In this document: piece after piece, positions 7,971 to 46,070 of the stretch
How positions within the stretch are numbered: the stretch's first letter is position 1
Layout of the letters: the number at the start of each line of letters is the position of its first letter
Source: an uncultured Methylopila sp.
Lineage (GTDB): Bacteria > Pseudomonadota > Alphaproteobacteria > Rhizobiales > Methylopilaceae
Reading direction: 5' to 3'
Length of the DNA: 64,000 nucleotides
NCBI GenBank assembly: GCA_902168115.1
Contig: CABHPB010000072.1
Location: forward strand, 1 to 64,000
Translations under genes and position numbers: made by a program
The notes under the pieces: model-generated
Told to the model about the DNA's origin: nothing
The model's input: the letters and a program-made list of their open reading frames with translations, nothing else
The model's database searches: none

Positions 7971-8054
7971 ATGAAGACCTTGCGCCCAATGTTCGATCGG
8001 GTCGGTCGCGCGCGCTCGTCGGGAGCGCGCCGCCACGGACGTCTGGACTCCGCG

Positions 8055-9053
8055 ATGACCGTCTTGGTGACCGGCGGCGCCGGGTACATCGGCAGCCACA
8101 TGACCCTCGCCCTCATGGACGCGGGCCGCGCCGTCGTCGTGCTCGACGACCTGTCGACCGGCTTCCGCAGCGCGGTGCCCGACGGCGTTCTCTTCGTCGA
8201 AGGCTGCGTCAGCGACGACCGCCTCGTGCGCACGATCATCGCCGAGCACGGCGTCGACGCCATCGTCCACTTCGCCGGCTCGATCGTCGTGCCGGATTCG
8301 GTGCGCGACCCGCTCGACTACTACCTGAACAACACGGTCCGCTCGCGCGCGCTGATCGCGGCGGCGGTCGCCGGCGGCGTGAAGCGCTTCGTGTTCTCCT
8401 CGACGGCGGCGGTCTACGGCGAGTCCGGCGGCGAGCCGCTCGACGAGGCCGCGCTGCTCGCGCCCGTCTCGCCCTACGGCGCCTCCAAGCTGATGACCGA
8501 GCGCATGCTGGCGGACTCCTCGGCCGCCTACGGGCTGCGCTACGTCGCGCTGCGCTACTTCAACGTGGCGGGCGCCGACCCGAGCGGGCGCTCGGGGTCG
8601 TCGAGCGCGCGCGCGACCCATCTCATCAAGCTCGCGACCCAGGTCGCGATCGGCAAGCGCGACAGCCTGCAAATCTACGGCGAGGACTATCCGACGCCAG
8701 ACGGCACGTGCCTGCGCGACTACATCCACGTCACCGACCTCGCCGAGGCGCACATGCTCGCGCTCGACCATCTGGCGCGCGGCGGCGGCGATCTCGTCGC
8801 CAATTGCGGCTACGGGCGCGCGGCCTCCGTGCGGGAGGTGATCGCGTCGGTGAAGCGGGTGTCCGGCTACGATTTCCCGGTCGACTCCGCGCCCCGGCGC
8901 GCCGGCGATCCGGCGGCGCTGGTCGCCCGGCCGGACCGCGCCAGAACCGTGCTTGGCTGGCGACCGCGCTTCGACGATCTCGACGTCATCGTCGCCCATG
9001 CGCTCGCATGGGAGAAGGCGCTTCCGGCGCCAGCGCCTGTGGCGGCGGCGTGA
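8055..9053 (+). CDS. galE: UDP-glucose 4-epimerase
   Basis: 332-residue short-chain dehydrogenase/reductase enzyme that interconverts UDP-glucose and UDP-galactose with bound NAD. Visible features are the nucleotide loop VTGGAGYIGSHM at the N-terminus, the catalytic Ser/Thr region SSTAAVYG, the YGASK Tyr-Lys pair, and the substrate-binding segments LRYFNVAGADPSG and CLRDYIHVTDLA. I chose ATG 8055 because it begins right at the Rossmann fold. An in-frame ATG at 7971 would add 28 Arg-rich residues. Supplying UDP-galactose for surface glycans fits the downstream genes, but UDP-arabinose or another 4-epimer cannot be excluded. Confidence 0.9.
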   Translation: MTVLVTGGAGYIGSHMTLALMDAGRAVVVLDDLSTGFRSAVPDGVLFVEGCVSDDRLVRTIIAEHGVDAIVHFAGSIVVPDSVRDPLDYYLNNTVRSRALIAAAVAGGVKRFVFSSTAAVYGESGGEPLDEAALLAPVSPYGASKLMTERMLADSSAAYGLRYVALRYFNVAGADPSGRSGSSSARATHLIKLATQVAIGKRDSLQIYGEDYPTPDGTCLRDYIHVTDLAEAHMLALDHLARGGGDLVANCGYGRAASVREVIASVKRVSGYDFPVDSAPRRAGDPAALVARPDRARTVLGWRPRFDDLDVIVAHALAWEKALPAPAPVAAA

Positions 9054-10602: not shown

Positions 10603-11814
10603 ATGACCGAGCACGCGCCCGAGAAGAAGCCGACGGACGCCCCAGCCTCGTCGCTGCGGGACTGGCGGATCGACTTCTTCCGCGGGCTCGCGATCGTGTT
10701 CATCCTCTGGAACCACTCGGCCGAGAACGTGCTGAGCTGGTTCACGACGCGCCACTACGGCCTGTCCGATTCCGCCGAACTGTTCGTCTTCCTGTCGGGC
10801 TACGCGATGGCGACGATGTTCCTGGCGAAGTTCCTCGTCAGGCCGGTGACCGCGCTGCCTTACGCGGTGATGCGGGCTTTCACGCTCTACATCCACCACA
10901 TCGCGGCCTTTATCATCATCGCGACGCTGGCCTCGACCTATCGCGGCTGGGCCGGATCGAGCGTGATGGAGCGCGACCTCTTCATCCGGCCGTTCTTCGT
11001 GGCGACCGAGACGGTGATGCCGAAGCTCGCGACGCTGGCCTATCTGCCGCCGCTGCTCGACATCCTGCCGCTCTACATCCTGCTGACGCTGCTGATCGGC
11101 GTGCTGTTCTTCCTGTTCCGCGAGCGCTGGGCCTACTACGTCGCCTTCGCGATCCCGGTCTGGGCGATCGCCTGGTTCACGGGGCTGAACTTCTCGTCCT
11201 ATCCGGACACGCGCCTGTGGAGCCTCAACCCGCTCTCATGGCAGGCGGTGTTCCTCGCCGGCTTCTGCGTGTGCCTGATGCGCGACGAGCCGTGGCTGCG
11301 CCGGGTCGCAGCCTCGCCGGTGACGTTCGCGATCTCGGTCGCCATCCTCGTCGTGGGGCTGATCGGCGCCGCGCCGTGGGCGCAGCTCGGCATCGTCGAC
11401 TGGAAGGTGAGCTGGCTGCCCGGCTGGTTCGACAAGATGTACGCCTCGCCGGTGCGCCTGATCCATTTCCTCGCGATGGCGCACGTCACCACCGTGCTGC
11501 TCAAGAAGGACAACCCGATCGGGAACTCCGTCTTCGCCCGTTCGATGATCCTGATCGGCCGCCGCAGCCTGCCGTTGTTCGTGATCTGCACGGTGTTCGC
11601 GGCGACCAGCTACGCCGTCTTCGAATGGTTCGGGCGGTCCTACCTCGTCCAGATCGTGTACGAGGGCGGGATGGCGCTGGTGCTGGTCGGGCTCGCCTCC
11701 ATCGCCAACACGGTGGGCGAGGCGACGCGCGGCAAGCCGCAAAGCGCGCCCGCGCGCGCCACGGCCCAGAGCGCCGCCGTCGAGCGGCCGGAGCTCGCCG
11801 CGCGTCACGCCTGA
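10603..11814 (+). CDS. OpgC-like membrane acyltransferase
   Basis: 403 residues with about ten hydrophobic segments, opening with RDWRIDFFRGLAIVFILWNH, the hallmark of the OpgC/acyltransferase-3 related family. OpgC proteins add succinyl groups to osmoregulated periplasmic glucans at the inner membrane. The conserved ELFVFLSGYAMA block follows. It starts at ATG 10603, 90 bases after the MFS gene. Position between galE and secreted lectin-oxidases suggests work on an envelope or exported glycan. Family assignment is firm; the exact acceptor and acyl group are inference. Confidence 0.82.
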   Translation: MTEHAPEKKPTDAPASSLRDWRIDFFRGLAIVFILWNHSAENVLSWFTTRHYGLSDSAELFVFLSGYAMATMFLAKFLVRPVTALPYAVMRAFTLYIHHIAAFIIIATLASTYRGWAGSSVMERDLFIRPFFVATETVMPKLATLAYLPPLLDILPLYILLTLLIGVLFFLFRERWAYYVAFAIPVWAIAWFTGLNFSSYPDTRLWSLNPLSWQAVFLAGFCVCLMRDEPWLRRVAASPVTFAISVAILVVGLIGAAPWAQLGIVDWKVSWLPGWFDKMYASPVRLIHFLAMAHVTTVLLKKDNPIGNSVFARSMILIGRRSLPLFVICTVFAATSYAVFEWFGRSYLVQIVYEGGMALVLVGLASIANTVGEATRGKPQSAPARATAQSAAVERPELAARHA

Positions 11815-12009
11815 CAGCCCAAGCGGCGCGATCGGAAATGGTTCCGGATCAATGATTTGCGCGAAATTGCCCGAAAAACGCATGTATTCGGGCTATCAGC
11901 GTTAATCTTTACGCGCCAATTCGATTGTCGTTTCAGAAAATTTGACTGAGTTTTTCTCGGAAAACTGGCCGCAGTTGGAGTGCGGACGGCTTTTCCGGGG
12001 GGACTCACG

Positions 12010-14358
12010 ATGAACGGACTGCGCGCTTTGGCGTCGGCGGGGGCGGTGTTTTTCGGCTGCGTCGCGTTCGGGAACGACGCCGCGGCTCAGACGATCCCGT
12101 CGGCCGGGCAGATCAAGTCGCCGTTCAGCGGCCTCTGCGCCGAGATTTCGGGCGCCTCGACCGCGATCGGGGCGAGGGCCGTCCAGCAGGCCTGCGGCTC
12201 GGGAGCGCAGCAGCAGTGGGAGTTCCGCGCCAGCGCCGCGGGCGGCCACCAGATCGTCAACCGCAACAGCAACCTGTGCCTCGGCGTCGCCGGGGCCTCG
12301 GTGGTGCAGGGGACCGCGAGCGAGCAGCAGGCCTGCACTGGCGGGGCCGGCCAGCGCTGGAGCATCGTCGCAAGCGGCGCGGTCGTGGAGATCCGCAACG
12401 TCAATTCCGGCCAGTGCCTCGAGATCGGCGGGGCCTCGACCTCGCCGGGCGCGACGCTGAGCCAGTGGAACTGCGCCGGCGCCGCGCAGCAGACGTGGAC
12501 GCTCGCTCCGTCGGCCGCGCCGGGCGGCGGACTGCTCGTCAACCGCAACAGCGGCATGTGCGCCCACATCCCCGGCGCCAGCAAGGCGCAGCTGACCGCG
12601 CTCACCCAGTGGACCTGCGCGCAGCAGGCGCATCTGCTGTGGGATTTCCGGCCGGCGACGGGCGGCGCCTACCAGATCGTCAACCGCAACAGCGGCCTGT
12701 GCCTCGACGTCAACGGCGCCTCCAAGGCCGACGGCGCGACGGCGATCCAGTATCCGTGCGGGACGCAGGCCAACCAGCTCTGGACCATGCGTCCGAAGGC
12801 CGACTCCGTCGAGCTCGTCGCCGTCCATTCCGGCAAGTGCCTCGACGTCGAGGGCGGCTCGATCGACCACAGCGGCAAGATCCTGCAGTGGACATGCAAC
12901 AGCGGCGCGAACCAGCAGTGGACGGTCCTGGGCGCCGCCGCTCCCTCCGCCTGGACGGCCCGCCTTCCGCTGCCGATCGTGCCAGTCGCGGCCTCGGTGC
13001 TGAGAAACGGCAAGATCCTGACCTGGTCGGCCTATGACCGCTTCGCCTTCGGCGGCGACCAGGGCAAGACCTTCACCGCCATCTTCGACCCGGCGACCAA
13101 CTCGGCCTCCGAGCGGCTCGTGTCGAACACCGGCCACGACATGTTCTGCCCCGGCACCTCGGTGCTGGCCGACGGCCGGATCCTCGTGACCGGCGGCTCC
13201 TCGAGCAGCAAGGCGAGCATCTACGACCCGACGTCCAACGCCTGGACGGCGACCACCCGCCTCAACGTGCCGCGCGGCTATCAGGGCGACACGCTGCTCT
13301 CGACCGGCGACGTGTTCACGGTCGGCGGCTCGTGGAGCGGCGGGCAGGGCGGCAAGGTCGGCGAGGTCTGGAGCCGCTCGGCCGGCACGTGGCGCAGGCT
13401 GACCGGCGTCAGCGGCGAGTCGATGGCCGCGACCGATCCGGGCGGGATCTATCGCGGCGACAACCACATGTGGCTCTACGGCGCGGCCAACGGCTACGTC
13501 TTCCAGGCCGGCCCGAGCCAGATGATGCACTGGGTCAACACCGCCGGGACCGGAACGGTCTCGAACGCGGGCCTGCGCGGCGACGACGCCTATTCGATGA
13601 ACGGCAACGTCGTGATGTACGACGCCGGCAAGCTGCTCAAGATGGGCGGCGCGCCCGGCTACGAGGCTCGGCTCGCCAAGCCGGCGGCCTACGTGATCGA
13701 CTTCTCGCGCGGCCCCGGCCAGCCGGTCGCGGTGACGCGGCAGAAGCCGATGGCGTTCCCGCGCGCCTTCGCCAACGCGGTCGCTCTGCCGAACGGCGAG
13801 GTCGTCGTCATGGGCGGCCAGACCTATCCGACGCCGTTCAGCGACGCCCGCGCCATCATGATCCCCGAGATCTGGTCGCCGTCGAGCGGCGCCTTCACGC
13901 GGCTCGCCGACATGACCATCCCGCGCACCTATCACAGCGTCGCCGGGCTGATGCTCGACGGGCGCGTCTTCGTGGGCGGCGGCGGGCTCTGCGGCTCCTG
14001 CGCGACCAACCACGCCGACATCCAGATCCTGACGCCGCCCTACCTGCTTAACGCCGACGGCTCGGCGGCGGCGCGGCCGACGATATCGAGCGCGCCGACC
14101 ACTGGAACCTGGGGGCAGACGGTGACTGTCGGCGCGACCGGCGCGAGCGCCTTCGCCCTGGTGCGGCTCAGCTCGACCACGCACTCGGTCAACAACGACC
14201 AGCGCCGCTTGCCTCTGGCGATCGCCTCGTCGAGCGGCTCGAGCTTCCGGCTCCAGCTGCCGTCCGATCGCGGCACGCTGCTGCCGGGCGACTGGATGCT
14301 GTTCGCGATGAACGGCGCAGGCACGCCGAGCCTCGCCAAGATCATCCGGGTGCAGTGA
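12010..14358 (+). CDS. Secreted ricin-lectin/galactose-oxidase-like copper radical oxidase (large)
   Basis: 782 residues. A signal peptide (about 1-27, ending DAAAQ) is followed by six QxW subdomains (QQQWEF, GQRWSI, QQTWTL, HLLWDF, NQLWTM, NQQWTV), i.e. two ricin B beta-trefoils (about 30-315). Then come a seven-bladed kelch-type oxidase domain and a C-terminal Ig-like DUF1929 domain. All copper/radical residues of fungal galactose oxidase are present: Cys380 (DMFCPG), Tyr424 (RGYQG), Trp442 (GGSWSGG), Tyr641-His642 (RTYHS) and His725 (THSVNNDQRR). The Cys-Tyr (44) and Tyr-Trp (18) spacings equal those of the fungal enzyme. Expected reaction: alcohol to aldehyde with O2 to H2O2, outside the cytoplasm. 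Start ATG 12010 follows a GGGGGGA site. Confidence 0.9.
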   Translation: MNGLRALASAGAVFFGCVAFGNDAAAQTIPSAGQIKSPFSGLCAEISGASTAIGARAVQQACGSGAQQQWEFRASAAGGHQIVNRNSNLCLGVAGASVVQGTASEQQACTGGAGQRWSIVASGAVVEIRNVNSGQCLEIGGASTSPGATLSQWNCAGAAQQTWTLAPSAAPGGGLLVNRNSGMCAHIPGASKAQLTALTQWTCAQQAHLLWDFRPATGGAYQIVNRNSGLCLDVNGASKADGATAIQYPCGTQANQLWTMRPKADSVELVAVHSGKCLDVEGGSIDHSGKILQWTCNSGANQQWTVLGAAAPSAWTARLPLPIVPVAASVLRNGKILTWSAYDRFAFGGDQGKTFTAIFDPATNSASERLVSNTGHDMFCPGTSVLADGRILVTGGSSSSKASIYDPTSNAWTATTRLNVPRGYQGDTLLSTGDVFTVGGSWSGGQGGKVGEVWSRSAGTWRRLTGVSGESMAATDPGGIYRGDNHMWLYGAANGYVFQAGPSQMMHWVNTAGTGTVSNAGLRGDDAYSMNGNVVMYDAGKLLKMGGAPGYEARLAKPAAYVIDFSRGPGQPVAVTRQKPMAFPRAFANAVALPNGEVVVMGGQTYPTPFSDARAIMIPEIWSPSSGAFTRLADMTIPRTYHSVAGLMLDGRVFVGGGGLCGSCATNHADIQILTPPYLLNADGSAAARPTISSAPTTGTWGQTVTVGATGASAFALVRLSSTTHSVNNDQRRLPLAIASSSGSSFRLQLPSDRGTLLPGDWMLFAMNGAGTPSLAKIIRVQ

Positions 14359-14486
14359 TGACACTGCGCAAAAGAGGCGCGATGCGGCTGGCCCTGTTTT
14401 GCGCGACGGTGGCGATGCTCGCCGCCTTCGCGCCCTCGACCGCGCCCGAGGCTCCGGTCGTCCCGGGCGAGACGCTCGTCGACTGA
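14358..14486 (+). CDS. 42-residue coupled small ORF with a hydrophobic segment
   Basis: The ATG at 14358 shares its A with the TGA stop of the large oxidase (TGATG), a classic coupling junction. It encodes 42 residues: a basic start (MTLRKRGAMR), one hydrophobic stretch (LALFCATVAMLAAFA), then a short Pro/Val-rich acidic tail. It could be a small exported or membrane peptide helping secretion or maturation of the oxidase. It could also be a chance ORF in GC-rich DNA. No equivalent follows the second oxidase. Confidence 0.4.
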   Translation: MTLRKRGAMRLALFCATVAMLAAFAPSTAPEAPVVPGETLVD

Positions 14487-14611
14487 GATGACGGCGTTAG
14501 CGTTTCGTTAGGCCTGTCGGCACTTTGGCGTCGGTCCTTGAAGAAATTTTATCGCTGACTTGGCATTGATTTCGGCCGTACGGGCGCGTGGCGCCGCGGC
14601 AGGAAACCGAG

Positions 14612-16552
14612 ATGACGACTCCGCGCGCATTCGTTGTTGCGCTCGCCGTGGCGTGCGGGTTCGGCGCCGTGCCGGCCGCGGCGCAGACAATTCCCGCCGC
14701 CGCCGACGATCAGGGCGTCCTGCTGGTCGGGCGCTACGCCGGCAAATGCGTCTCGCCTTCCGGCGAGAGCACGATCGCCGGCGCCCGGCTCGTCCAGACG
14801 ACATGTTTCGACCGGTCCGCGATGACCTGGAGCGTCGTACCGGCGACAGGCGGCTCGAGGCTCGTCAACCGCGCTTCGGGCCTGTGCGCCGTCGTCGTCG
14901 GCGGTTCCTCGGCGGACGAGGCCGCGGTCGCGCAAGCCCCCTGCGCCCAGCCCGGGACGATCGGCCTCTGGACCGTGCGCGCCAGCGCGGACTGGGTCGT
15001 CATCGCGTCGGTCCAGAGCGGCAAGTGCCTCGGCGTCAAGGACGCGTCGATCGAGGAGGCGGGGCCCCTCGTGCAGTGGACCTGCGTCGACGAGCCGAGC
15101 CAGCAATGGACCATGTCCGGGCCCGGCGCGCCGTCCGAGTGGGGACCGAAGATCGCGATGCCGATCGTGCCGGTCGCCGCCTCGACGTTGCGCAACGGCA
15201 AGGTGCTGACCTGGTCGTCCTGGAGCCGGTTCCAGTTCGCGCCGGACCTCGGCAAGACCTTCACTTCGATCTTCGATCCCGAGACCGGAACGGCGACCGA
15301 AAAACTCGTGACCAAGACCGGCCACGACATGTTCTGCCCCGGCACCTCCATGCTGGCGGACGGGCGCATCCTTGTGACCGGCGGCGAGTCAGCCTCCAAG
15401 GCCAGCATCTACGATCCGAAGACCAACAAGTGGTCGGCGACTGGCGAGCTCAACGTCGCGCGCGGGTACAACGGCGACACGGCGCTCTCGACGGGAGAGG
15501 CGCTCACCATCGGCGGCTCTTGGAGCGGCGGCCTCGGCGGCAAGATCGGCGAGGTCTGGAACCCGAAGACGGGAACCTGGCGCAAGCTGAAGGGCGTGTC
15601 TGGCGACGCGCTCGCAGCGGACGACCCCCTCGGCGATATGCTCGGCGACCAGCACATGTGGCTGTTCGGAGCTGACGACGGCTGGGCCTTCCACGCCGGC
15701 CCGAGCGCCGAGATGCACTGGGTGGACACGGCGGGGAAGGGGCGCATCGTCGCCGCCGGCAAGCGCGGCGACGACCCCTACAGCCAGAACGGCAACGTCG
15801 TGATGTACGAGGCCGGCAAGCTCCTGAAGGTCGGCGGCGCGCCGTCCTATCAGGTCGCGATGGCCACCAGCTCGGCCTACACGATCGACTTCTCGCGCGG
15901 ACCGGGAGGCCCGGTGAAGGTCGTCAGGCAGAAGCCGATGGCGTTCCCGCGCTCCTTCGCGAATTCGGTGGTGCTGCCGACCGGCGAAGTCGTGGTGGTG
16001 GGCGGGCAGGCCGTCCCCATCACCTTCACCGACTCGCACGCCGCCATGCTGGCGGAGATCTGGTCGCCCAAGACGAAGTCCTTCACGCGCCTCGCGGCCC
16101 TGTCGACGCCGCGCAACTATCACAGCATCGCGGTGCTGCTGACCGACGGGCGGGTGCTCGCCGGCGGCGGGGGCCTGTGCGGCGAGGGCTGCGCCGCCAA
16201 CCACCCGGACGTCGAGATCCTGACGCCGCCCTATCTGCTGAACGCCGACGGCTCGCCCGCCCCGCGTCCGACGATCGTCAAGGCGCCGAAGAAGGCGACG
16301 TGGGGCGAGACGATCGCGGTCCAGGCGGAAGGCTACGCGAAGTCCTTCGCGCTCATCCGCCTCAACGCCGCGACCCACTCGCTCAACAACGACCAGCGCC
16401 GGATGTCCGTGAAGGTGATGTCGGCCGACGGACCGAGCTTCCGGCTCAAGATGCCGAAGGACCGCGGAATGCTGCTGCCCGGCGACTGGATGCTGTTCGC
16501 CATGACCGAGAAGGGCACGCCGAGCGTGGCGAAAATTCTTCGCGTGCAGTGA
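14612..16552 (+). CDS. Secreted ricin-lectin/galactose-oxidase-like copper radical oxidase (small)
   Basis: 646-residue paralogue of the upstream oxidase. A signal peptide (about 1-25, ending PAAAQ) leads to a single ricin-type trefoil with three degenerate W repeats (MTWSVV, GLWTVR, QQWTMS), then the oxidase propeller and C-terminal DUF1929 domain. Active-site residues are all kept: Cys242, Tyr286, Trp304, Tyr503-His504 and His589. The 44-, 18- and 85-residue spacings match Fusarium galactose oxidase. ATG 14612 has AGGAAA five to six bases upstream. It probably arose by tandem duplication and has lost or never gained the second trefoil. The substrate is unknown; galactose-type sugars or simple alcohols/glyoxal are the family precedents. 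Confidence 0.9.
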   Translation: MTTPRAFVVALAVACGFGAVPAAAQTIPAAADDQGVLLVGRYAGKCVSPSGESTIAGARLVQTTCFDRSAMTWSVVPATGGSRLVNRASGLCAVVVGGSSADEAAVAQAPCAQPGTIGLWTVRASADWVVIASVQSGKCLGVKDASIEEAGPLVQWTCVDEPSQQWTMSGPGAPSEWGPKIAMPIVPVAASTLRNGKVLTWSSWSRFQFAPDLGKTFTSIFDPETGTATEKLVTKTGHDMFCPGTSMLADGRILVTGGESASKASIYDPKTNKWSATGELNVARGYNGDTALSTGEALTIGGSWSGGLGGKIGEVWNPKTGTWRKLKGVSGDALAADDPLGDMLGDQHMWLFGADDGWAFHAGPSAEMHWVDTAGKGRIVAAGKRGDDPYSQNGNVVMYEAGKLLKVGGAPSYQVAMATSSAYTIDFSRGPGGPVKVVRQKPMAFPRSFANSVVLPTGEVVVVGGQAVPITFTDSHAAMLAEIWSPKTKSFTRLAALSTPRNYHSIAVLLTDGRVLAGGGGLCGEGCAANHPDVEILTPPYLLNADGSPAPRPTIVKAPKKATWGETIAVQAEGYAKSFALIRLNAATHSLNNDQRRMSVKVMSADGPSFRLKMPKDRGMLLPGDWMLFAMTEKGTPSVAKILRVQ

Positions 16553-16635
16553 CGGCTGCGCGCGGCGGTTACGACTCCTTTGCCCGTGCGGGCGTAGCCT
16601 GACCAGCGACGCCGAACCTGCCGAGGTTGATTCAG

Positions 16636-17205
16636 ATGCGCGTGCAAGCCTCGATCCGCGCCGCGGTTTTCGCGATCGCCGCCGGCCTGTTCGGAGCGCT
16701 GGCGATCGCCGGCGCCGACGCCGATCCGATGACGCCGGGGCCCTTCACCCTGACCGCGGTCGACGGCTCGACGGTGGACGGGGCGGACCTCGACGGAAAA
16801 CCCTACGGGCTGATGTTCGGCTTCACCCATTGCCCGGACGTCTGCCCGACGGCGCTGGCCGAACTGACGACGGCGCTCGCCGCCTCGCCCAGGCTGCCTA
16901 AGGAGTTCCACGTCTATTTCGTCGCGATCGATCCGGAGCGCGACACGCCGAAGGCGCTCGGCGCCTATCTCTCCGCGTTCGATCCGCGGATCGTCGGCCT
17001 GACCGGCTCCCGCGAGGACGTCGCGACGGCGACGCAGGCCTTCGGGGCCGTCGCGCGCAAGCTGACGTTCAAGTCCGGCGACTACACGATGGAGCACACC
17101 GCGGCGCTCTACCTCGTCAACGGCGACGGCATGATCGCGGATCGGGTCTCCTTCAAGGAGCCGTCGGACGAGATGGCGCGGCGCATCGCCGCCGTGGCGC
17201 GCTGA
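16636..17205 (+). CDS. Sco1/SenC-type copper chaperone
   Basis: 189 residues with an N-terminal signal or anchor (about 5-28) and a thioredoxin-like Sco domain. The copper ligands are visible: CPDVC (FTHCPDVCPTA) and the distal histidine in YTMEHTAALYLVN. Sco proteins deliver copper, usually to cytochrome oxidase, across the periplasmic face. I see no oxidase subunit genes here. Instead the gene follows two copper radical oxidases by 83 bases on the same strand, so I infer that it loads them, as reported for Sco and GlxA in Streptomyces. ATG 16636 is chosen (GAGG nine bases upstream) over TTG 16627. Confidence 0.88.
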   Translation: MRVQASIRAAVFAIAAGLFGALAIAGADADPMTPGPFTLTAVDGSTVDGADLDGKPYGLMFGFTHCPDVCPTALAELTTALAASPRLPKEFHVYFVAIDPERDTPKALGAYLSAFDPRIVGLTGSREDVATATQAFGAVARKLTFKSGDYTMEHTAALYLVNGDGMIADRVSFKEPSDEMARRIAAVAR

Positions 17206-17439
17206 AAACCGGCGACCTCGACCGGGCGACTTGCGCCGGCCTTCGCGCATGCGAAAGATGAGACTTTCGGATGGCCGCCGCCGGCGGCCGCACGGGGTCT
17301 CAACCGGATGTCCGCAGGCAAGTCGCCGTCGAACAAGAAAACGTCTTCGAGCAGGAAGCCTGCGATCGCCGGCACGGTATCGGCGAAGGCGCGGAAAGCC
17401 GCCCCGAAGAACGGGGCGCCCGCTGCCGAGGACGCGCTG

Positions 17440-20400
17440 ATGACTGCCCGCAAGATCACCAAGCTGCTCGTCGCCAACCGCTCGGAGATCGCGATCCGCG
17501 TGTTCCGCGCCGCGACCGAGCTCGGCATCCGCACGGTCGCGATCTACGCCGAGGAGGACAAGCTCTCGCTTCACCGCTTCAAGGCCGACGAGGCCTATCA
17601 GGTGGGCAAGGGCATGGGTCCGCTCGAGGCTTATCTGTCGATCCCCGAGGTGATCCGCGTCGCCAAGGACGCCGGCGTCGACGCCATCCATCCGGGCTAT
17701 GGCTTCCTCTCGGAAAGCCCCGAATTCGCCGACGCCTGCGCCGAGGCCGGCATCCTGTTCGTCGGTCCGTCCGCCGACACCATGCGCGCGCTCGGCAACA
17801 AGGTGGCGGCGCGCAACCTCGCCATCGCGAACGGCGTGCCGGTGATGCCGGCGACCGATCCGCTTCCCGACGACGAGAAGGAGATCAAGAAACTCGCCGA
17901 GGAGATCGGCCTTCCGGTGATGCTGAAGGCCTCCTGGGGCGGCGGCGGGCGCGGCATGCGCGTCATCCGCGACATGGCCAAGCTCCCGCAGGAGGTGAAG
18001 AACGCCAAGCGCGAGGCCAAGTCCGCCTTCGGCAAGGACGACGTCTATCTCGAGAAGCTCGTCGAGAAGGCCCGCCACGTCGAGGTGCAGATCCTCGGCG
18101 ACCGGCACGGCAACGCCGTGCACCTGTTCGAGCGCGACTGCTCGGTGCAGCGCCGCCACCAGAAGGTCGTGGAGCGCGCCCCGGCGCCCTATCTCGACGA
18201 CGCGCGCCGCGCCGCGCTCTGCCAGAGCGCGCTGAAACTCGCCCGCGCGACCGATTATCTCGGCGCCGGCACGGTCGAGTACCTGATGGACGCCGACACC
18301 GGCGAGTTCTACTTCATCGAGGTCAATCCGCGCGTCCAGGTCGAGCACACGGTGACCGAGGTCGTCACCGGCGTCGACATCGTGAAGGCGCAGATCCGGC
18401 TTGTGGAAGGCGCGCCGATCGGCTCGGAGGAATCGGGCGTTCCGGCGCAGGACCAGCTTCGGCTCAACGGCCACGCGCTTCAGTGCCGGGTGACGACCGA
18501 GAACCCGGAAGACAACTTCATCCCGGACTACGGCCGCATCTCGGCCTATCGCGGCGCCATGGGCTTCGGCATCCGCATCGACGGCGGCACGGCCTATTCG
18601 GGCGCGGTCATCACCCGTTTCTACGATCCGCTGCTGGAGAAGGTGACCGCCTGGGCGCCGACGGCCGAGGAAGCCTGCAAGCGCATGAGCCGCGCGCTGC
18701 GCGAGTACCGCATCCGCGGCGTCGCGACGAACCTCGCCTTCCTCGAGAACGTCGTCGAGCACCCGATCTTCCTCGCGGGCGAGACCACGACCCGCTTCAT
18801 CGACGACACGCCCGAGCTGTTCGAGTTCTCCAAGCGCCAGGATCGCGCGACCCGGCTGCTCACCTACATCGCCGACGTCACCGTCAACGGCCATCCCGAG
18901 ACCAAGGACCGCGCGAAGCCGAAGCCCGGCGCGCTCGCGCCGAAGGCGCCGATCTTCGCGACCGCGAAGGAGGAGGCGGGGCCCGCGAGCGGCCATCTCG
19001 ACCTTGCGCCGGGCTCGCGCCAGCTGCTCGACAAGCTCGGCCCGAAGAAGTTCGGCGAGTGGATGCGCAAGCAGAAGGCCGTGCTCGTCACCGACACGAC
19101 CATGCGCGACGCGCACCAGTCGCTGCTCGCGACCCGCATGCGGACCTTCGACATCGCGGCCTCGGCGAGCTCCTACGCGACCGGCCTGCCGAACCTGCTG
19201 AGCCTGGAATGCTGGGGCGGCGCGACCTTCGACGTCGCCATGCGCTTCCTGACCGAAGACCCGTGGGAGCGGCTGCACAAGATCCGCGAGGGCGCGCCCA
19301 ACATCCTGCTGCAGTGCCTCGTGCGAGGCTCGAACGGCGTCGGCTACGCCAACTATCCGGACAACGTCGTGAAGCGCTTCGTCCACGAAGCGGCGGCGAA
19401 CGGCATGGACGTCTTCCGCGTGTTCGACTGCCTCAACTGGCTCGACAACATGCAGGTGACGATCGAGGCGGTGAACGAGGCCGGCAAACTGTGCGAGGCC
19501 TCGATCTGCTACACGGCCGACATCTTCGACGCGTCGCGCTCGAAGTATGACCTGAAGTACTACGTCAAGCTGGCTAAGAAGCTTGAGAAATCCGGCGCGC
19601 ACGTCCTCTGCGTCAAGGACATGGCCGGCCTGCTGAAGCCCGCCGCCGCCCGCGTGCTGGTCAAGGCGCTGCGCGAGGAGATCGGCCTGCCGGTGCACCT
19701 TCACACCCACGACACCTCGGGCGTCGCCGGCGCTTCCGTTCTCGCGGCGGTCGACGCCGGCGTCGACGCGATCGACGTCGCGATGGACGCCATGTCCGGC
19801 ATGACCTCGCAGGCCTGTCTCGGCTCGGTCGCCGCCGCGCTGAAAAATTCTCCGCGCGATCCGGAGCTCGACGCCGACGCGATCCGCCAGATCTCGCTCT
19901 ATTGGGAGGCGGCGCGCGCGCAATACGCCGCCTTCGAGAGCGACCTGCTGGCGCCGGCCTCGGAGGTCTATCTCCACGAGATGCCGGGCGGGCAGTTCAC
20001 CAACCTCAAGGAGCAGGCCCGCTCCATGGGGCTGGAGCGGCGCTGGAACGAGGTCGCCAAGACCTATCGCGACGTCAACGACATGTTCGGCGACATCATT
20101 AAGGTGACGCCGACCTCGAAGGTCGTCGGCGACATGGCGCTGGTCATGGTCTCGGCCGGCCTCACCCGCGCGGAGGTCGAGGATCCGAAGGTCGAGGTGT
20201 CCTTCCCCGAAAGCGTCGTCCAGCTGATGAAGGGCGAGCTCTCCATGCCGCCGGACGGCTTCCCGGAGAAGATCCAGAAGAAAGTCCTGAAGGGCGAGAA
20301 GCCGCTCAAGGAGCGCGCCGGCGCGCTGATGAAGCCGGCGGACTTCGACGCGGTCCGCAAGGAGGCCGAGGAGAAGGTCGACAGGAAGATCACCGACGCC

Positions 20401-20925
20401 GAGCTCGCCTCCTACCTCATGTACCCAAAGGTGTTCTCCGACTTCGCCGCGCAGGAGAAGAAATACGGGCCGGTCTCCTGTCTGCCGACGCCGGTGTTCT
20501 TCTACGGCGTCCACGCCGGCGACGAGATCTCGGTCGAGATCGAGCGCGGCAAGGTGCTGGTGATCCGCTGCCAGGGCGTCGGCGAGACCGACGAGGAGGG
20601 GCAGGTCCGCGTCTTCTTCGAGCTCAACGGCCAGCCGCGCAGCGTGAAGGTGCCGAACCGCACCGCCGCCAATGTCCGCGAGGCGCGCAAGAAGGCGACC
20701 GACGGCGACCCGTCCCATGTCGCGGCCCCCATGCCGGGCATCATCTCGACTGTCTCGGTCAAGGAGGGCCAGAAGGTCGAGCAGGGTGACGTGATCTGCT
20801 CGATCGAGGCCATGAAGATGGAGACCGCGCTCCACGCCGAGCGGGGCGGCGTGATCAAGGAGGTGCTGGTCTCGCCCGGCACGCCGGTCGACGCCAAGGA
20901 CCTGCTGGTCGTGATCGGGGACTGA
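17440..20925 (+). CDS. pyc: Pyruvate carboxylase
   Basis: 1161-residue single-chain, biotin-dependent enzyme making oxaloacetate from pyruvate, bicarbonate and ATP. Domains in order: biotin carboxylase (KLLVANRSEIAIRVFRAA, ATP-grasp loop ASWGGGGRGMR, EVNPRVQVEHTVTE), HMGL-like carboxyltransferase (TTMRDAHQSLLATRMR, HTHDTSG), PYC/OADA domain and a C-terminal biotinyl domain with the attachment motif EAMKME. I chose ATG 17440, with GAGGA seven bases upstream, which starts just before the conserved domain. An upstream in-frame ATG at 17308 would add 44 Lys/Ala-rich residues with a poor ribosome site. It is a cytoplasmic anaplerotic enzyme. Confidence 0.95.
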   Translation: MTARKITKLLVANRSEIAIRVFRAATELGIRTVAIYAEEDKLSLHRFKADEAYQVGKGMGPLEAYLSIPEVIRVAKDAGVDAIHPGYGFLSESPEFADACAEAGILFVGPSADTMRALGNKVAARNLAIANGVPVMPATDPLPDDEKEIKKLAEEIGLPVMLKASWGGGGRGMRVIRDMAKLPQEVKNAKREAKSAFGKDDVYLEKLVEKARHVEVQILGDRHGNAVHLFERDCSVQRRHQKVVERAPAPYLDDARRAALCQSALKLARATDYLGAGTVEYLMDADTGEFYFIEVNPRVQVEHTVTEVVTGVDIVKAQIRLVEGAPIGSEESGVPAQDQLRLNGHALQCRVTTENPEDNFIPDYGRISAYRGAMGFGIRIDGGTAYSGAVITRFYDPLLEKVTAWAPTAEEACKRMSRALREYRIRGVATNLAFLENVVEHPIFLAGETTTRFIDDTPELFEFSKRQDRATRLLTYIADVTVNGHPETKDRAKPKPGALAPKAPIFATAKEEAGPASGHLDLAPGSRQLLDKLGPKKFGEWMRKQKAVLVTDTTMRDAHQSLLATRMRTFDIAASASSYATGLPNLLSLECWGGATFDVAMRFLTEDPWERLHKIREGAPNILLQCLVRGSNGVGYANYPDNVVKRFVHEAAANGMDVFRVFDCLNWLDNMQVTIEAVNEAGKLCEASICYTADIFDASRSKYDLKYYVKLAKKLEKSGAHVLCVKDMAGLLKPAAARVLVKALREEIGLPVHLHTHDTSGVAGASVLAAVDAGVDAIDVAMDAMSGMTSQACLGSVAAALKNSPRDPELDADAIRQISLYWEAARAQYAAFESDLLAPASEVYLHEMPGGQFTNLKEQARSMGLERRWNEVAKTYRDVNDMFGDIIKVTPTSKVVGDMALVMVSAGLTRAEVEDPKVEVSFPESVVQLMKGELSMPPDGFPEKIQKKVLKGEKPLKERAGALMKPADFDAVRKEAEEKVDRKITDAELASYLMYPKVFSDFAAQEKKYGPVSCLPTPVFFYGVHAGDEISVEIERGKVLVIRCQGVGETDEEGQVRVFFELNGQPRSVKVPNRTAANVREARKKATDGDPSHVAAPMPGIISTVSVKEGQKVEQGDVICSIEAMKMETALHAERGGVIKEVLVSPGTPVDAKDLLVVIGD

Positions 20926-37846: not shown

Positions 37847-38980
37847 TCAGCGTTCGACGACGAGATCGCTCGTCGGTCTGGAGCAGCACAGCAGCGCCAT
37901 GCCCTGGTCGATCTCGCGCTGGCGGATGCCGCCGGCGTGCTTCATGTCGACGGTCCCGGAGGCGAGCTTCGACTTGCAGGTGCCGCACAGGCCCTTGGTG
38001 CAGGACGAGGGCAGCCGCATGCCGGCCTTCCGCGCGGCGTCGAGCACCGTCATGTTCTCCGGGCAGTCGATGAAGCGCTTGGTCTTCGAGAACTCGACCC
38101 GGTAGGTCCGGACCTCGGCAGGCGCGGCCTCGGCCTCGAAGGTCTCTGCGGCCTGCTCCGCCGCCGCCAGCTCGGCGCCGGACAGCTCCTCGAAGTTGAA
38201 GCTCTCCTCGTGGTGCCGGTTCATATCGAAGCCGGCGTCCGCCAGCATCTTCTTCACGCCCGCCATGTACGGCGCGGGACCGCAGACGAAGACCTCGCGC
38301 TCGCGGAAGTCCGGAACGGCGAGCGCCAGCATCGGCAGGCTGATGCGGCCGGTGAAGCCGTGCCAGCGCTCGGCCGGCGCGTCGCGCTCGCACACGGGCA
38401 CGAACTGGAAGCCGGGGTCGCGCGCGGCCATCAGCTCAAGCTCGGCGCGGAACACGATGTCGGCCGGCGTGCGCGCCGAATGCACGAACACGACGTCGCG
38501 CGGCTCGGCGAGGTCGTGGAAGGTCCGCGACATCGACATCATCGGCGTGACGCCGCTGCCGCCGGACAGGAACAGGTACTTCTTCGCCGGGTGCTCGAAG
38601 CAGGAGAACTCGCCCATCGGGCCGAGCGCGCGCACCTCCTTGCCCGGCTGCATGTTGTCGTGCAGCCAGTTTGAGACGGGCCCGCCGGCGACGCGCTTCA
38701 CCGTGATGGACACGACGTCCGGCCGCGTCGGCGCGGAGGAGATCGTGTAGCAGCGGTGGATGGTCTCGGATCCGACCTCAAAGGCGAAGGTCAGGAATTG
38801 GCCGGGCTTGTAGTCGAAGCGCTGCGGCGTGCGGGCGCCGAACACGAAGGTCCTGACGTCGGGCGTCTCCTGCCGAACGGCCCGGCAGACCAGCACGTCG
38901 TCCGCTTCCGCGTTCCATGCGCCGGGAGCGGTCAGGCGCTCCGAAGCGGGCTCGGCCGATCCGTTGAGGCCGCTGCTCAC
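37847..38980 (-). CDS. gbcB: GbcB glycine betaine monooxygenase reductase
   Basis: 377 residues. A ferredoxin-NADP reductase-like part binds FAD (RCYTISSAP) and NAD(P)H (FLSGGSGVTPMMSMSR, VFVCGPAPYM). A C-terminal plant-type 2Fe-2S ferredoxin has SSCTKGLCGTCKSKL and a distal Cys in LLCCSRP. It feeds electrons to the GbcA oxygenase. GTG 38980 overlaps the gbcA stop by four bases, so both are made together. Confidence 0.92.
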   Translation of the reverse strand: MSSGLNGSAEPASERLTAPGAWNAEADDVLVCRAVRQETPDVRTFVFGARTPQRFDYKPGQFLTFAFEVGSETIHRCYTISSAPTRPDVVSITVKRVAGGPVSNWLHDNMQPGKEVRALGPMGEFSCFEHPAKKYLFLSGGSGVTPMMSMSRTFHDLAEPRDVVFVHSARTPADIVFRAELELMAARDPGFQFVPVCERDAPAERWHGFTGRISLPMLALAVPDFREREVFVCGPAPYMAGVKKMLADAGFDMNRHHEESFNFEELSGAELAAAEQAAETFEAEAAPAEVRTYRVEFSKTKRFIDCPENMTVLDAARKAGMRLPSSCTKGLCGTCKSKLASGTVDMKHAGGIRQREIDQGMALLCCSRPTSDLVVER

Positions 38981-40242
38981 GAGCGCCGCCCCACATAGTC
39001 GGCCATGCGGCCGCAGTACCAGTTCACGAATTTCTCGACGAGCATCTCGGTGTGCGGCGAGTAGGGGCCGGGCTCGTAGGCCGGGCTCTCCATGCTGCTC
39101 TGGCAGTAGCCGACGAGGGTCGAATCCTGGTCGTTGGTCGCGAGCCAGACCGAGGTCAGGTTCTCGAGGTCGTAGTCGACGCCCTCGACCGCATCCTTGT
39201 GGACGAGCCACTTGGTCCTGAGCAGGGAATGCGTCGCGTCGACCGGCAGCACCGAGAAGGTGACGATGTGGTCGCCGAGGAAGTGGTGCCAGCTGTTCGG
39301 CTGGGTCCAGACCGACAGGCCGCCGATCTTGGCGTTGGTGAGGTCGCCGAGCAGCTTCCTGCAGGCCGCCTTGGTGTCGATGGTGTGGCTCTCGCCATCG
39401 CCGTCGAGCGGCAGGCGCTCGGTGCGAAAGCCCGTGACCATCGTGTCGAGTTCGTCGATCTCCTTCGACGGCAGGCCGCTCGCCTCCCAGTCCTTGTGGT
39501 TGTCGCGGATCAGGCAGCCGTAGCGCTCGGCGTTGGCGCGGTCATGGTCGTCCATCTCCTCCGGCGAGAAGCCGAAGCCGTAGGCGAACAGCGGGACGGT
39601 GAGCTCGGGATGGTTCGCCCCGCAGTGATAGCACTCGCGGTTGTTCTCCATCGTGAGCTTCCAGTTGCCCGGCTCGACGATGTCGGACTGGAAGGCGACC
39701 TTCGTGTTCCGGACGTTGTGGGGAGCGATGTACGGGCCGAGGCGGCGCGCGACGTCGTCGAAGTCGGCCGGCGGCTCGTCGGCGAGGCAGATGAAGAGCA
39801 GGCCCTCGAGCGAACGGATGTGGACAGGCTTCAGACTGTGGCTGCAGGCCTTGAAGTCCGGGCCCATGTGCTCGGCGTGGAGCAGCGAGCCGGCGAGATC
39901 GTAGGTCCAGGAATGGTAGCGGCAGACGAGGTTGCCGACCGTGCCCTTCTCCTCGTGGACGAGGCGGGCGCCGCGGTGGCGGCAGACGTTGTGAAACGCG
40001 CGGACCTGCTCGTCGTCGTCGCGGACGATCAGGACCGATGCGCCGGCGACCTCGACGGTCATGACGTCGCCCGGCTCGGCGACGTCCGGTTCGACGCCGA
40101 CATAGATCCAGTTGCGCTTGAAGATCCCTTCCATGTCCGCCTGGAAGATTTCCGGATCGCGATAGAACGCCGCCGGCAGCGTGTAGCCGCGCTTGCGGTC
40201 GCGAAGGAGCTGCTGGAGGGGCGTTTGGGTCACGTCGAGCAT
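38977..40242 (-). CDS. gbcA: GbcA Rieske-type glycine betaine monooxygenase
   Basis: 421 residues. The N-terminal Rieske domain has ligands Cys87-His89 and Cys107-His110 (CRHRGARLV, CRYHSWTY). The catalytic domain has the mononuclear iron site around ENNRECYHCGANHPEL with His206 and His211. With GbcB it oxidatively removes a methyl group from glycine betaine, yielding dimethylglycine and formaldehyde. It is first in the gbcA-gbcB-dgcA-dgcB-etfA-etfB-BCCT run. A choline or carnitine monooxygenase would look similar, but linkage to dgc and sox genes favours glycine betaine. Confidence 0.92.
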   Translation of the reverse strand: MLDVTQTPLQQLLRDRKRGYTLPAAFYRDPEIFQADMEGIFKRNWIYVGVEPDVAEPGDVMTVEVAGASVLIVRDDDEQVRAFHNVCRHRGARLVHEEKGTVGNLVCRYHSWTYDLAGSLLHAEHMGPDFKACSHSLKPVHIRSLEGLLFICLADEPPADFDDVARRLGPYIAPHNVRNTKVAFQSDIVEPGNWKLTMENNRECYHCGANHPELTVPLFAYGFGFSPEEMDDHDRANAERYGCLIRDNHKDWEASGLPSKEIDELDTMVTGFRTERLPLDGDGESHTIDTKAACRKLLGDLTNAKIGGLSVWTQPNSWHHFLGDHIVTFSVLPVDATHSLLRTKWLVHKDAVEGVDYDLENLTSVWLATNDQDSTLVGYCQSSMESPAYEPGPYSPHTEMLVEKFVNWYCGRMADYVGRRS

Positions 40243-40469
40243 CGTTGGGCTCCGCGCATCGCCGGGCGCCGTATCCCGCGCCCTTGGAACGATTATGATC
40301 GCGCCGTTCCGCCACGCTGGCTTGCGAGCGACATCGACTTTTGAAAGCGCGACTTCGCCCTTCGACAGCGCTTATGCTGCGAACGAGGCGCGAGCGATGC
40401 CTTCGTGGTATTTTAAGGCATGCATAGTCGCCCCCATGGTGATGTGAGGTCGGGATTAGAGAGGGTAGG

Positions 40470-42125: not shown

Positions 42126-42157
42126 TCGGGGATCCGGCGAGGGGAGCGGCGGTTTCC

Positions 42158-42185
42158 GTCCCCCTCCAGCAAGGGGGAGGGGAGC
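42158..42185. repeat. REP-like element in the soxG-sdaA gap
   Basis: TCCCCCTCCAGCAAGGGGGA (hairpin arms CCCCCT and AGGGGG) followed by GGGGAGCAGCGGTGAGG. It matches the core of the elements at 1-39 and 35557-35697 and lies between the soxG stop and the sdaA start. Confidence 0.55.
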
Positions 42186-42204
42186 AGCGGTGAGGCCACT
42201 CCAT

Positions 42205-45760: not shown

Positions 45761-46053
45761 CACGCCCTCGCCTCGGTGGTGGTCGACTTGGGCTTGCCGC
45801 CCATCGGATAGGTCTCGACGAAGCGGTCGCTCACGGTGTCGCGCAGCGCGTTGAACCAGCGGCCGCAGCCATGCTGGTGGATCCAGCGCTCGGCGTGGAC
45901 GCCGCGCGGATTGGCGCGGACGAACAGGTACTCGGACCAGTCCTGGTCGCCGACGTCGACGGGCTTTTCGGGCCGGGCGACATGGGCCTGTCCGCCGCAG
46001 CGGAACTCGGTCTCTGGCCTCAGGCCGCAGCAGGGGCAGTCGATCAGCAGCAT
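45760..46053 (-). CDS. soxD: Sarcosine oxidase delta subunit
   Basis: 97 residues with the zinc-binding pattern CPCCGLRPETEFRCGG near the N-terminus, then DWSEYLFVRANPRGVHAERW and IHQHGCGRWFNALRDTV. SoxD is a small structural subunit holding zinc in the heterotetramer. It is 17 bases after soxB and coupled to soxA. ATG 46053 gives the usual length. Confidence 0.95.
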   Translation of the reverse strand: MLLIDCPCCGLRPETEFRCGGQAHVARPEKPVDVGDQDWSEYLFVRANPRGVHAERWIHQHGCGRWFNALRDTVSDRFVETYPMGGKPKSTTTEARA

Positions 46054-46070
46054 GGCGGACGGCCTCGGGG

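What the first reader, a model, noticed from the sequence alone, without database searches (positions are those of the whole stretch)
12010..17205. Tandem lectin-tethered copper radical oxidases with a Sco chaperone: candidate undescribed extracellular glycan-oxidation system
Two secreted proteins combine ricin-type lectin domains with a complete galactose-oxidase catalytic domain (Cys-Tyr cofactor, stacking Trp, axial Tyr, two His). A copper chaperone gene follows on the same strand. Galactose-oxidase-like enzymes are best known in fungi and in Streptomyces (GlxA); a lectin-fused pair in a Gram-negative alphaproteobacterium is unusual. Seen: motifs and spacing. Inference: it oxidises a galactose-containing surface or environmental glycan and makes H2O2.
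Basis: partly seen in the sequence, partly recalled or inferred. Interest (0 to 1): 0.8.

Follow-up and report, generated by a model that had tools for sequence, protein, structure and literature searches.

The report
Twin lectin-galactose oxidases with copper chaperone
A bacterium of the Methylopila group carries two sugar-binding copper oxidases of the galactose oxidase family, apparently exported, next to what looks like their own copper-loading helper; the enzyme type is known, but the movable gene set, the second enzyme's changed pocket and the separate helper lineage are new variations.

Summary
P1 (12010-14358) and P2 (14612-16552) carry signal peptides, ricin-type lectin domains (two in P1, one in P2) and complete copper-radical-oxidase domains. 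Models superpose on galactose oxidases at 1.2-1.3 A over ~475 residues. They belong with true galactose oxidases, nearest the solved Pseudoarthrobacter enzyme, not with GlxA.

Refinements: (1) P1 keeps the Trp/Arg pair that marks galactose 6-oxidases; P2 has Leu for the Arg, as does only its ortholog among 32 complete lectin-fused domains. (2) The Sco gene belongs to a separate clade: 11 of 11 members lie beside a CRO (100/99). (3) CRO(s)+sco sits between opgC and pyc in 5 of 13 congeners; the other 8 have the empty site. (4) 8 of 8 CRO-bearing congeners have a type II secretin, against 1 of 5 others: export outside is likely, not shown.

Lectin-CRO fusions occur in many bacteria, and a CRO-Sco link is in print for Streptomyces and Burkholderia, so this is a new variant of a known kind. 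Side finding: 28 of 30 CRO frames of at least 1,400 aa carry two haem-c motifs.

The parts
12010..14358 (+). P1: two ricin-B trefoils + galactose-oxidase-type copper radical oxidase domain, 782 aa, stop included
   Evidence: ORF; Pfam; PDB phmmer; AlphaFold2 pLDDT 93.2, pTM 0.81; VIA-align Z 65.2, 1.3 A/481 to 9g8h
12010..12087 (+). P1 Sec-type signal peptide, read by eye (cleavage ...AAA/QTIP)
   Evidence: sequence; same AAAQTIP junction in P2; no signal-peptide program was run
12103..12504 (+). P1 trefoil 1 (residues ~32-165); the Asp of the sugar sites is absent in all three subdomains (CAEI, CLGV, CLEI)
   Evidence: that this Asp marks sugar-binding subdomains is recalled
12529..12927 (+). 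P1 trefoil 2 (residues ~174-306); keeps CLDV in beta and gamma subdomains (residues 231, 277)
   Evidence: aligned with ThreeFoil 3pg0 and S. lividans CBM13 1knl
12937..14355 (+). P1 catalytic domain (kelch propeller + E-set), residues 310-782
13147..13149 (+). P1 Cys380 = GalOx C228 (thioether partner of Tyr424 at 13279-13281 = Y272)
13333..13335 (+). P1 Trp442 = W290
13453..13455 (+). P1 Arg482 = R330, galactose-recognition residue
   Evidence: role from PMC11267884 (passages)
13930..13935 (+). P1 Tyr641-His642 = Y495-H496; His725 = H581 at 14182-14184
14612..16552 (+). P2: one ricin-B trefoil + copper radical oxidase domain, 646 aa, stop included
   Evidence: AlphaFold2 pLDDT 92.7, pTM 0.93; VIA-align Z 65.3, 1.2 A/479 to 9g43
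14720..15121 (+). P2 trefoil (residues ~37-170), no such Asp in any subdomain (CVSP, CAVV, CLGV), only one QxW left
15335..15337 (+). P2 Cys242 = C228; Tyr286 15467-15469 = Y272; Trp304 15521-15523 = W290
15638..15643 (+). P2 Met343-Leu344 in place of Y329-R330: galactose-recognition residues lost
16118..16123 (+). P2 Tyr503-His504 = Y495-H496; His589 = H581 at 16376-16378
16627..17205 (+). sco: Sco-family copper chaperone with an N-terminal leader (by eye), CPDVC (from 16831) and His157 (17095) intact; member of a CRO-linked Sco clade
10603..11814 (+). left border gene opgC (not part of the unit)
17308..20925 (+). right border gene pyc, pyruvate carboxylase (not part of the unit)

Best explanation
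The three genes form one unit for exported copper radical oxidases that is gained, lost or moved as a block. P1 and P2 cross the inner membrane with Sec-type signals (read from sequence), fold in the periplasm, receive copper from the CRO-linked Sco protein (inferred), and copper then makes the Cys-Tyr cofactor by itself (established for galactose oxidase, recalled). The folded enzymes are then most likely released by the type II secretion system (inferred from co-occurrence). P1 docks on a glycan through its second trefoil and oxidises the C6 hydroxyl of terminal galactose to an aldehyde, making H2O2 (inferred from R482/W442). P2 is a duplicate whose lectin sites look decayed and whose Arg is replaced by Leu; it most likely oxidises another primary alcohol, not galactose (inferred). 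Shown: predicted folds, residues, gene linkage, empty sites, phylogeny. Not shown: any activity, copper transfer, or export.
For: Residues and folds. C228/Y272/Y495/H496/H581 kept in 91 of 91 full-length catalytic domains of this family examined, the window's two included; 8 partial rows were dropped first. R330: 30 of 32 complete lectin-fused domains have Arg; the two without are P2 and its ortholog in 'Chelatococcus sambhunathii' S14. Duplication within the group: P2 + S14 P2 (100/100) sister to P1 + S14 P1 + both G007 copies, joined 99/98. Sco beside lectin-CRO in 7 of 7 congeners that carry one; CRO-linked Sco form one clade of 11 against 28 other Sco, support 100/99. Empty site opgC-pyc in 8 of 8 congeners lacking the unit there. 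GspD over cut-off in 8 of 8 CRO-bearing and 1 of 5 CRO-less congeners, p 0.007. Sco is needed for GlxA maturation at low copper in S. lividans (PMC4736821, passages and section 17 seen).
Against: No biochemical data. P1 has Glu at GalOx Q406 and Gly at Q326, so activity on galactose may be weak. R330 is 'necessary but not sufficient' (PMC11267884). One further lectin-fused copy, the interrupted one of C. methanolivorans, has Tyr at R330; it was among the dropped rows. The lectin reading rests on a recalled Asp rule. 8 of 26 lectin-CRO loci of genome contigs showed no Sco in the stretch held, and in G221 the Sco is divergently transcribed. The Sco trees carry long-branch warnings, and the CRO tree flags P2 for odd letter make-up. 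The type II link is a co-occurrence among related genomes; 4 of 19 order genomes with CRO-like matches lack GspD, all four remote matches of 27-33% identity, though three other remote ones (G121, G207, G214) have it. No sigma-70-type promoter match was found, so operon status is open. Five of 13 congeners have no CRO, so the function is accessory.
Confidence: 0.75

Rival explanations
1. Both enzymes are plain galactose 6-oxidases, the second copy giving only dosage.
For: W290, F194, Q406 and F464 equivalents and all copper ligands are kept in P2; congener G007 carries two P1-like copies that both keep Arg.
Against: P2 lost Y329 and R330 (Met/Leu, and Ser/Leu in the ortholog), a change found in no other of the 32 complete lectin-fused domains, and sits on a stem branch of 0.35 changes per column.
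Confidence: 0.15
2. P2 is decaying: a catalytically idle or structural paralogue.
For: Degenerate lectin sites and lost recognition residues; some other CRO copies in the genus look broken by frame changes or stops (G004).
Against: The frame is intact with coding-like composition, all six catalytic-centre residues are kept, the model is confident, and the ortholog in S14 keeps the same features at 93% identity over the catalytic domain.
Confidence: 0.1
3. The system modifies the cell's own glycan (as GlxA does in Streptomyces) instead of an environmental one; the neighbour opgC hints at periplasmic glucans.
For: opgC is the gene immediately upstream; the bacterial CROs with described phenotypes (GlxA, FbfB) act in morphogenesis (PMC3543389 passages).
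Against: opgC is present in 13 of 13 congeners and is followed directly by pyc in 8 of 8 without the unit there; in M. capsulata and Methylopila sp. Yamaguchi the unit lies elsewhere, so the neighbourhood is positional. A cslA-like gene was not specifically sought.
Confidence: 0.25
4. The main purpose is H2O2 production (antagonism or feeding a peroxidase); the sugar is only fuel.
For: CRO chemistry makes H2O2; relatives fuse or pair CROs with peroxidase-type modules (PMC9770985 and PMC4736821 passages).
Against: None of the neighbours scanned (MFS transporter, opgC, pyc) is a peroxidase; the one CCP_MauG match in the own genome is on another contig.
Confidence: 0.2

Closest known systems
Galactose oxidase of Pseudoarthrobacter siccitolerans (PDB 9g43, 9g8h)
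   Same: Bacterial; same catalytic fold, 49-53% identical over ~480-500 residues, all metal/cofactor residues and Arg (P1)
   Different: P2 lacks the Arg. Its N-terminal domain was not analysed here; the stretch printed looks by eye like the end of an F5/8C (CBM32) domain, not a trefoil. Only PDB titles and sequence were seen; searches found no paper on it in the held library.
Fusarium graminearum galactose oxidase (AA5_2, 1gof)
   Same: C228, Y272, W290, Y495, H496, H581; P1 also F194, Y329, R330, F464; 1.3 A over 474 residues
   Different: Fungal, CBM32 (PMC12355970 passage) instead of ricin-B/CBM13; P1 has Glu for Q406 and Gly for Q326
GlxA of Streptomyces lividans (4unm)
   Same: Copper radical oxidase outside the cytoplasm; Sco needed for its copper loading (PMC4736821)
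   Different: Only 25-27% identity, 2.5-2.6 A over ~445 residues; buried site and cslA operon (PMC4736821 passages); NCBIfam GlxA model far below cut-off
Gox-sco gene pairs of Burkholderia and Frankia noted in PMC4736821
   Same: CRO gene beside a sco gene
   Different: In the loci seen here Burkholderiales carry a divergent Sco (TGCSxxCP[ILV]Q type) whereas the Methylopila group and Methylobacterium carry CPD[VI]C Sco of a separate clade. The paper's supplementary figure was not seen.
FbfB of Stigmatella aurantiaca
   Same: Galactose-oxidase-like protein of a Gram-negative bacterium with a described phenotype (fruiting bodies; PMC3543389 passages)
   Different: Not compared by sequence here

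Membership tests
Galactose oxidase / AA5 copper radical oxidases | Cys-Tyr pair, axial Tyr, two His, stacking aromatic residue | tested here: met
   for P1 and P2
Galactose oxidase / AA5 copper radical oxidases | Kelch propeller plus C-terminal E-set domain supplying the last His | tested here: met
   Pfam; models and superpositions (blades not counted)
Galactose oxidase / AA5 copper radical oxidases | Thioether cross-link and oxidase activity with H2O2 | not testable with these tools
   needs protein
Galactose 6-oxidases (functional group), applied to P1 | W290/R330 pair (PMC11267884) | tested here: met
   W442/R482
Galactose 6-oxidases (functional group), applied to P2 | W290/R330 pair | tested here: not met
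   W304 but L344
AA5_2 subfamily in CAZy | Placement in the CAZy subfamily tree | not tested
   CAZy models not at hand; [quoted passage not shown]
GlxA equivalog (NF052501) | Score over the curated cut-off of 800 bits | tested here: not met
   127.1 and 147.9 bits
Ricin-B lectin / CBM13 | Beta-trefoil fold | tested here: met
   Pfam; P1 trefoil 2 Z 28.1, 0.8 A over 138 to 3pg0; P2 Z 26.8, 1.1 A over 138
Ricin-B lectin / CBM13 | Sugar-site Asp (recalled rule) | tested here: inconclusive
   present in 2 of 3 subdomains of P1 trefoil 2, in 0 of 3 of trefoil 1 and 0 of 3 of P2
SCO1/SenC copper chaperones | PF02630 over cut-off, CxxxC and downstream His | tested here: met
   148.1 bits against 22.8; CPDVC and His157
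SCO1/SenC copper chaperones | Copper delivery to the linked oxidase | not testable with these tools
   needs knock-out or transfer assay

The most novel reading that the evidence does not exclude
Bacteria have made copper radical oxidases into portable export modules: CRO loci travel with their own Sco paralogue, split off from the housekeeping Sco, that loads copper in the periplasm before the folded enzyme leaves by type II secretion. In this lineage the oxidase duplicated and the second copy switched substrate (Arg to Leu), giving a secreted two-enzyme set of galactose oxidase plus a different alcohol oxidase. A parallel solution in the same genus and in Burkholderiales fuses the H2O2-making CRO to a C-terminal di-haem, peroxidase-like part in one chain of roughly 1,650-2,550 residues, with a second, divergent Sco type.
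Probability: 0.4. Interest if true: 0.72.

Novelty: new variant of a known kind. Interest (0 to 1): 0.52.

Why it matters
It makes a testable case that Sco proteins have branched into enzyme-specific chaperones for secreted copper enzymes, and that copper loading of an exported radical oxidase happens before outer-membrane transit. It also offers a natural pair of closely linked oxidases (65% identical catalytic domains) that differ at the known specificity position, and a lectin-targeted bacterial source of galactose oxidase for glycan labelling.

Tried and rejected
Rejected: that the proteins are GlxA-like; that opgC or pyc are partners; that the architecture is unique to this genus or to alphaproteobacteria (26 catalytic rows with a ricin-B domain, all N-terminal, out of 79 full rows from 78 loci).

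Led nowhere: no relative in viral contigs; no promoter-like site in 11600-17400 and one terminator-like site, fewer than the shuffle mean of 2.6. Paper searches, of which I saw listings: the Pseudoarthrobacter enzyme, CRO with di-haem peroxidase or fusion, Sco with galactose oxidase, Methylopila with galactose oxidase; apart from PMC4736821 none of the listed titles or abstract starts describes this system. That covers only the held open-access library and the rows listed. The 2007 genome-based Sco study cited as reference 60 in PMC4736821 was not looked up and may already list galactose-oxidase neighbours. A beta-proteobacterial copper-proteome survey (PMC6769254) does not contain the word galactose.

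Limits of counts: the genome-contig scan used two strict peptide patterns and kept the best 80 of 215 confirmed stretches (79 loci), so shares are of near relatives only. Sco counts use my own profiles built from these loci, which could miss actinobacterial Sco; some loci are cut short by contig ends. The genus Sco count (E <= 1e-10) does not see the divergent Sco type that G008 has beside its long CRO. In one search the label 'linked' needed two changes only because the Methylobacterium nonmethylotrophicum Sco was labelled otherwise; its locus L181 shows a CRO match 417 bp away in the same call. Of the 28 Sco outside the clade, 24 (congeners, G027, G110, G221, G247) lie far from every CRO place listed; the 4 of Methylobacterium were not checked. 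The E <= 1e-80 line for 'close' CRO in the secretin test was set after seeing the data; p values ignore kinship; that searches drew the same 397 genomes is taken from the matching handles. The 'galE' query (window 8021-9050) was read in a wrong frame, matched no Pfam family, and is not used.
Full report
What is there. The window belongs to a 4.1-Mb draft genome. Gene order is galE-like, MFS transporter, opgC, P1, P2, sco, pyc, dnaG-like (the galE and dnaG names are by eye). P1 has two ricin-B trefoils and P2 one, each protein then having a kelch propeller and the galactose-oxidase E-set domain. Both begin with a hydrophobic leader ending in the same AAAQTIP junction, read by eye.

Catalytic site. 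Aligned to Fusarium galactose oxidase, both proteins keep C228, Y272, W290, Y495, H496 and H581. AlphaFold2 models are confident (P1 pLDDT 93.2, P2 92.7). P2 superposes on 9g43 with Z 65.3, 1.2 A over 479 residues and on 1gof with 64.9, 1.3 A over 474; P1 on the galactose complex 9g8h with 65.2, 1.3 A over 481 and on 1gof with 65.1, 1.3 A over 474; GlxA (4unm) is clearly further (44.1 and 44.6, 2.5-2.6 A over 444-445).

Specificity. PMC11267884 (passages seen) calls the W290/R330 pair the key indicator of galactose 6-oxidase activity, with R330 necessary but not sufficient. P1 keeps it (W442/R482), with Y481 and F610 also kept but Glu at Q406 and Gly at Q326. P2 keeps Trp but has Met-Leu for Y329-R330. 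Across 91 full-length catalytic domains (8 partial rows dropped), Arg is kept in 30 of 32 lectin-fused domains; the two exceptions are P2 and its S14 ortholog. One of the dropped rows, the interrupted C. methanolivorans copy, has Tyr there. Among lectin-less domains in frames under 1,300 aa Arg is kept in 28 of 29; in frames of 1,400 aa or more in 16 of 30. The tree of 55 domains puts P2 with its S14 ortholog (100/100) as sister of P1, S14 P1 and both G007 copies (99/98), with a stem of 0.35; the program flags P2 for odd letter make-up. So the duplication appears to predate the split of window, S14 and G007, and G007 has either lost P2 and re-duplicated P1 or converted it.

Lectins. P1 trefoil 2 keeps CLDV in two subdomains, aligned with ThreeFoil and the S. 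lividans xylan-binding CBM13; trefoil 1 and the P2 trefoil keep none. That this Asp marks live sugar sites is recalled knowledge. I read this as one working lectin in P1 and degenerate ones elsewhere.

The unit and its mobility. Of 13 congeners, 8 have a CRO: lectin-type in 7 (G000, G010, G007, G011, G004, G002, G009; in G004 and G009 the frame is interrupted), two copies in tandem in 3 of these (G000, G010, G007). Other genera of the family: 0 of 5 genomes. In the order: 19 of 397 genomes, 10 of 141 genera at E <= 1e-30. In five congeners (G000, G010, G007, G011, G004) the unit lies between opgC and pyc; in the 8 others opgC and pyc are neighbours with 70-281 bp between aligned ends; two of those 8 (G002, G009) carry CRO+sco elsewhere. 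The unit CRO(s)+sco therefore moves or is lost as one.

A separate Sco. A Sco gene lies directly beside the lectin-CRO in 7 of 7 congeners, and in G027, G221 (divergently transcribed) and Methylobacterium terricola. Of the 6 congeners without a lectin-CRO, 5 have one Sco at E <= 1e-10 and G003 has three; those with a lectin-CRO have two, except G004 with five matches, two of them apparently pieces of one gene. In a tree of 39 Sco proteins the CRO-linked ones form a clade of 11 with 100/99 support; the member first labelled otherwise has a CRO match 417 bp away, so 11 of 11 are linked. Internal order of the clade is weak, several branches are long, and the program warns of long branches meeting. 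The own genome's other Sco lies on contig C23; what it serves was not tested. Among the 79 genome-contig loci a Sco-family gene lies within 2 kb of the longest CRO frame in 44, and S14 (2.2 kb from P1, beside its P2) makes 45: 18 of 26 lectin loci, 21 of 26 long-frame loci, 6 of 27 others. By my sorting of the record titles, 23 of the 79 are Actinobacteria and 0 of these has one. The second, divergent Sco type was tested in four samples (Burkholderia, Undibacterium, an Acetobacteraceae MAG and congener G008); 4 of 4 pass the Pfam cut-off for SCO1-SenC. The idea of a Sco-CRO link is not new: Sco is required for GlxA maturation at low copper, and PMC4736821 mentions Gox-sco neighbours in certain Burkholderia and a sco homologue beside the cslA-glxA cluster in Frankia. 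What I did not find in the listings of two searches is a separate clade of CRO-linked Sco in alphaproteobacteria.

Export. A type II secretin (TIGR02517 over cut-off) occurs in 9 of 13 congeners: 8 of 8 with a CRO and 1 of 5 without (Fisher p 0.007). In the order sample of 397 genomes 64 have a secretin at E <= 1e-90. Of the 12 with a close CRO (E <= 1e-80, line set afterwards) 12 do, against 52 of 385 (p 1e-10, kinship ignored); outside the genus 4 of 4 against 51 of 380 (p 4e-4). Of all 19 CRO-like genomes 15 do, against 49 of 378; the four without (G264, G294, G295, G334) are remote matches, but so are three with it. This favours release by type II secretion but does not show it.

What it most likely does. 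P1: lectin-guided galactose 6-oxidase giving an aldehyde and H2O2 outside the cell. P2: a substrate-shifted alcohol oxidase. Sco: periplasmic copper loading of both. Physiological purpose is open between acting on outside glycans, on the cell's own surface, and H2O2 production.

Novelty. The enzyme class, lectin fusion and Sco partnership each have precedents, so I file it as a new variant of a known kind. The added points are the separate Sco clade, the empty-site evidence for a mobile unit, the natural Arg-to-Leu switch in a tandem copy, and the type II secretin link.

Side finding. In three congeners (G002, G008, G009) and in G110, and in many Burkholderiales, a second CRO type is a single frame of about 1,650-2,550 aa with the CRO towards the N-terminus, followed in the two scanned by Ig, F5/8C, PKD and propeller-like domains (PA14 in one) and a C-terminal part with two CxxCH motifs about 130 residues apart (two motifs in 28 of 30 CRO frames of at least 1,400 aa; none in 61 of 61 shorter ones). 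Two were Pfam-scanned: that of Sphaerotilus natans passes the CCP_MauG cut-off (38.8 against 25.6 bits) and falls just short for RoxA-like (26.6 against 26.7); that of G008 passes RoxA-like (34.4 against 26.7) and falls just short for CCP_MauG (24.9). A genome-wide CCP_MauG search of the congeners found the long CRO only in G009 and, beside a broken CRO, in G004, so the peroxidase reading is tentative. An H2O2 producer and a likely H2O2 user in one chain recalls the CRO-peroxidase partnerships of Colletotrichum (PMC9770985) and Streptomyces (PMC4736821), of which I saw passages.

Noticed in passing
L050 5636-10720 (-), L051 9278-14395 (+), L052 8703-13787 (+), L049 5064-10163 (-); also L084, L131 and others: Giant CRO proteins with two CxxCH haem motifs in the C-terminal part (28 of 30 CRO frames of at least 1,400 aa); Pfam CCP_MauG or RoxA-like matches over cut-off in the two scanned; divergent Sco nearby. 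No such match in the window's genome.
   Followed up: partly
G000:C50:5403-7331 and order-wide genomes: Type II secretin tracks CRO presence in the genus (8 of 8 against 1 of 5) and in the order sample (15 of 19 against 49 of 378).
   Followed up: partly
window 14358-14486 (+): Short frame overlapping the P1 stop codon, hydrophobic start (42 aa); not kept as such in S14 or G007. Possibly a leftover of a lost sco leader from a CRO-sco tandem duplication; speculation.
   Followed up: partly
L039 8722-9015: In congener G007 the region before the second CRO resembles by eye the region before P1 in the window, as if the duplication took the upstream region along.
   Followed up: no
L043 9705-10428 (-), L044, L045, L046, L053: Several CRO copies (Methylopila sp. 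Yamaguchi, C. methanolivorans, G247) are interrupted by frame changes or stops; sequencing error or decay not told apart.
   Followed up: no
G003:C16:825810-826232 and G003:C7:101696-102094: A congener without CRO has three Sco genes, two of them outside both the CRO-linked clade and the main housekeeping group.
   Followed up: no
window 62407-63999 (-), 42779-46240 (-), 38980-40371 (-), 40782-42314 (-): One-carbon-type surroundings: PQQ methanol/ethanol dehydrogenase family, sarcosine oxidase alpha family, a glycine betaine monooxygenase-like oxygenase below cut-off, L-serine ammonia-lyase.
   Followed up: no
G000:C109:74913-75362: The own genome has one CCP_MauG-type match, on another contig than the CRO unit.
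   Followed up: no
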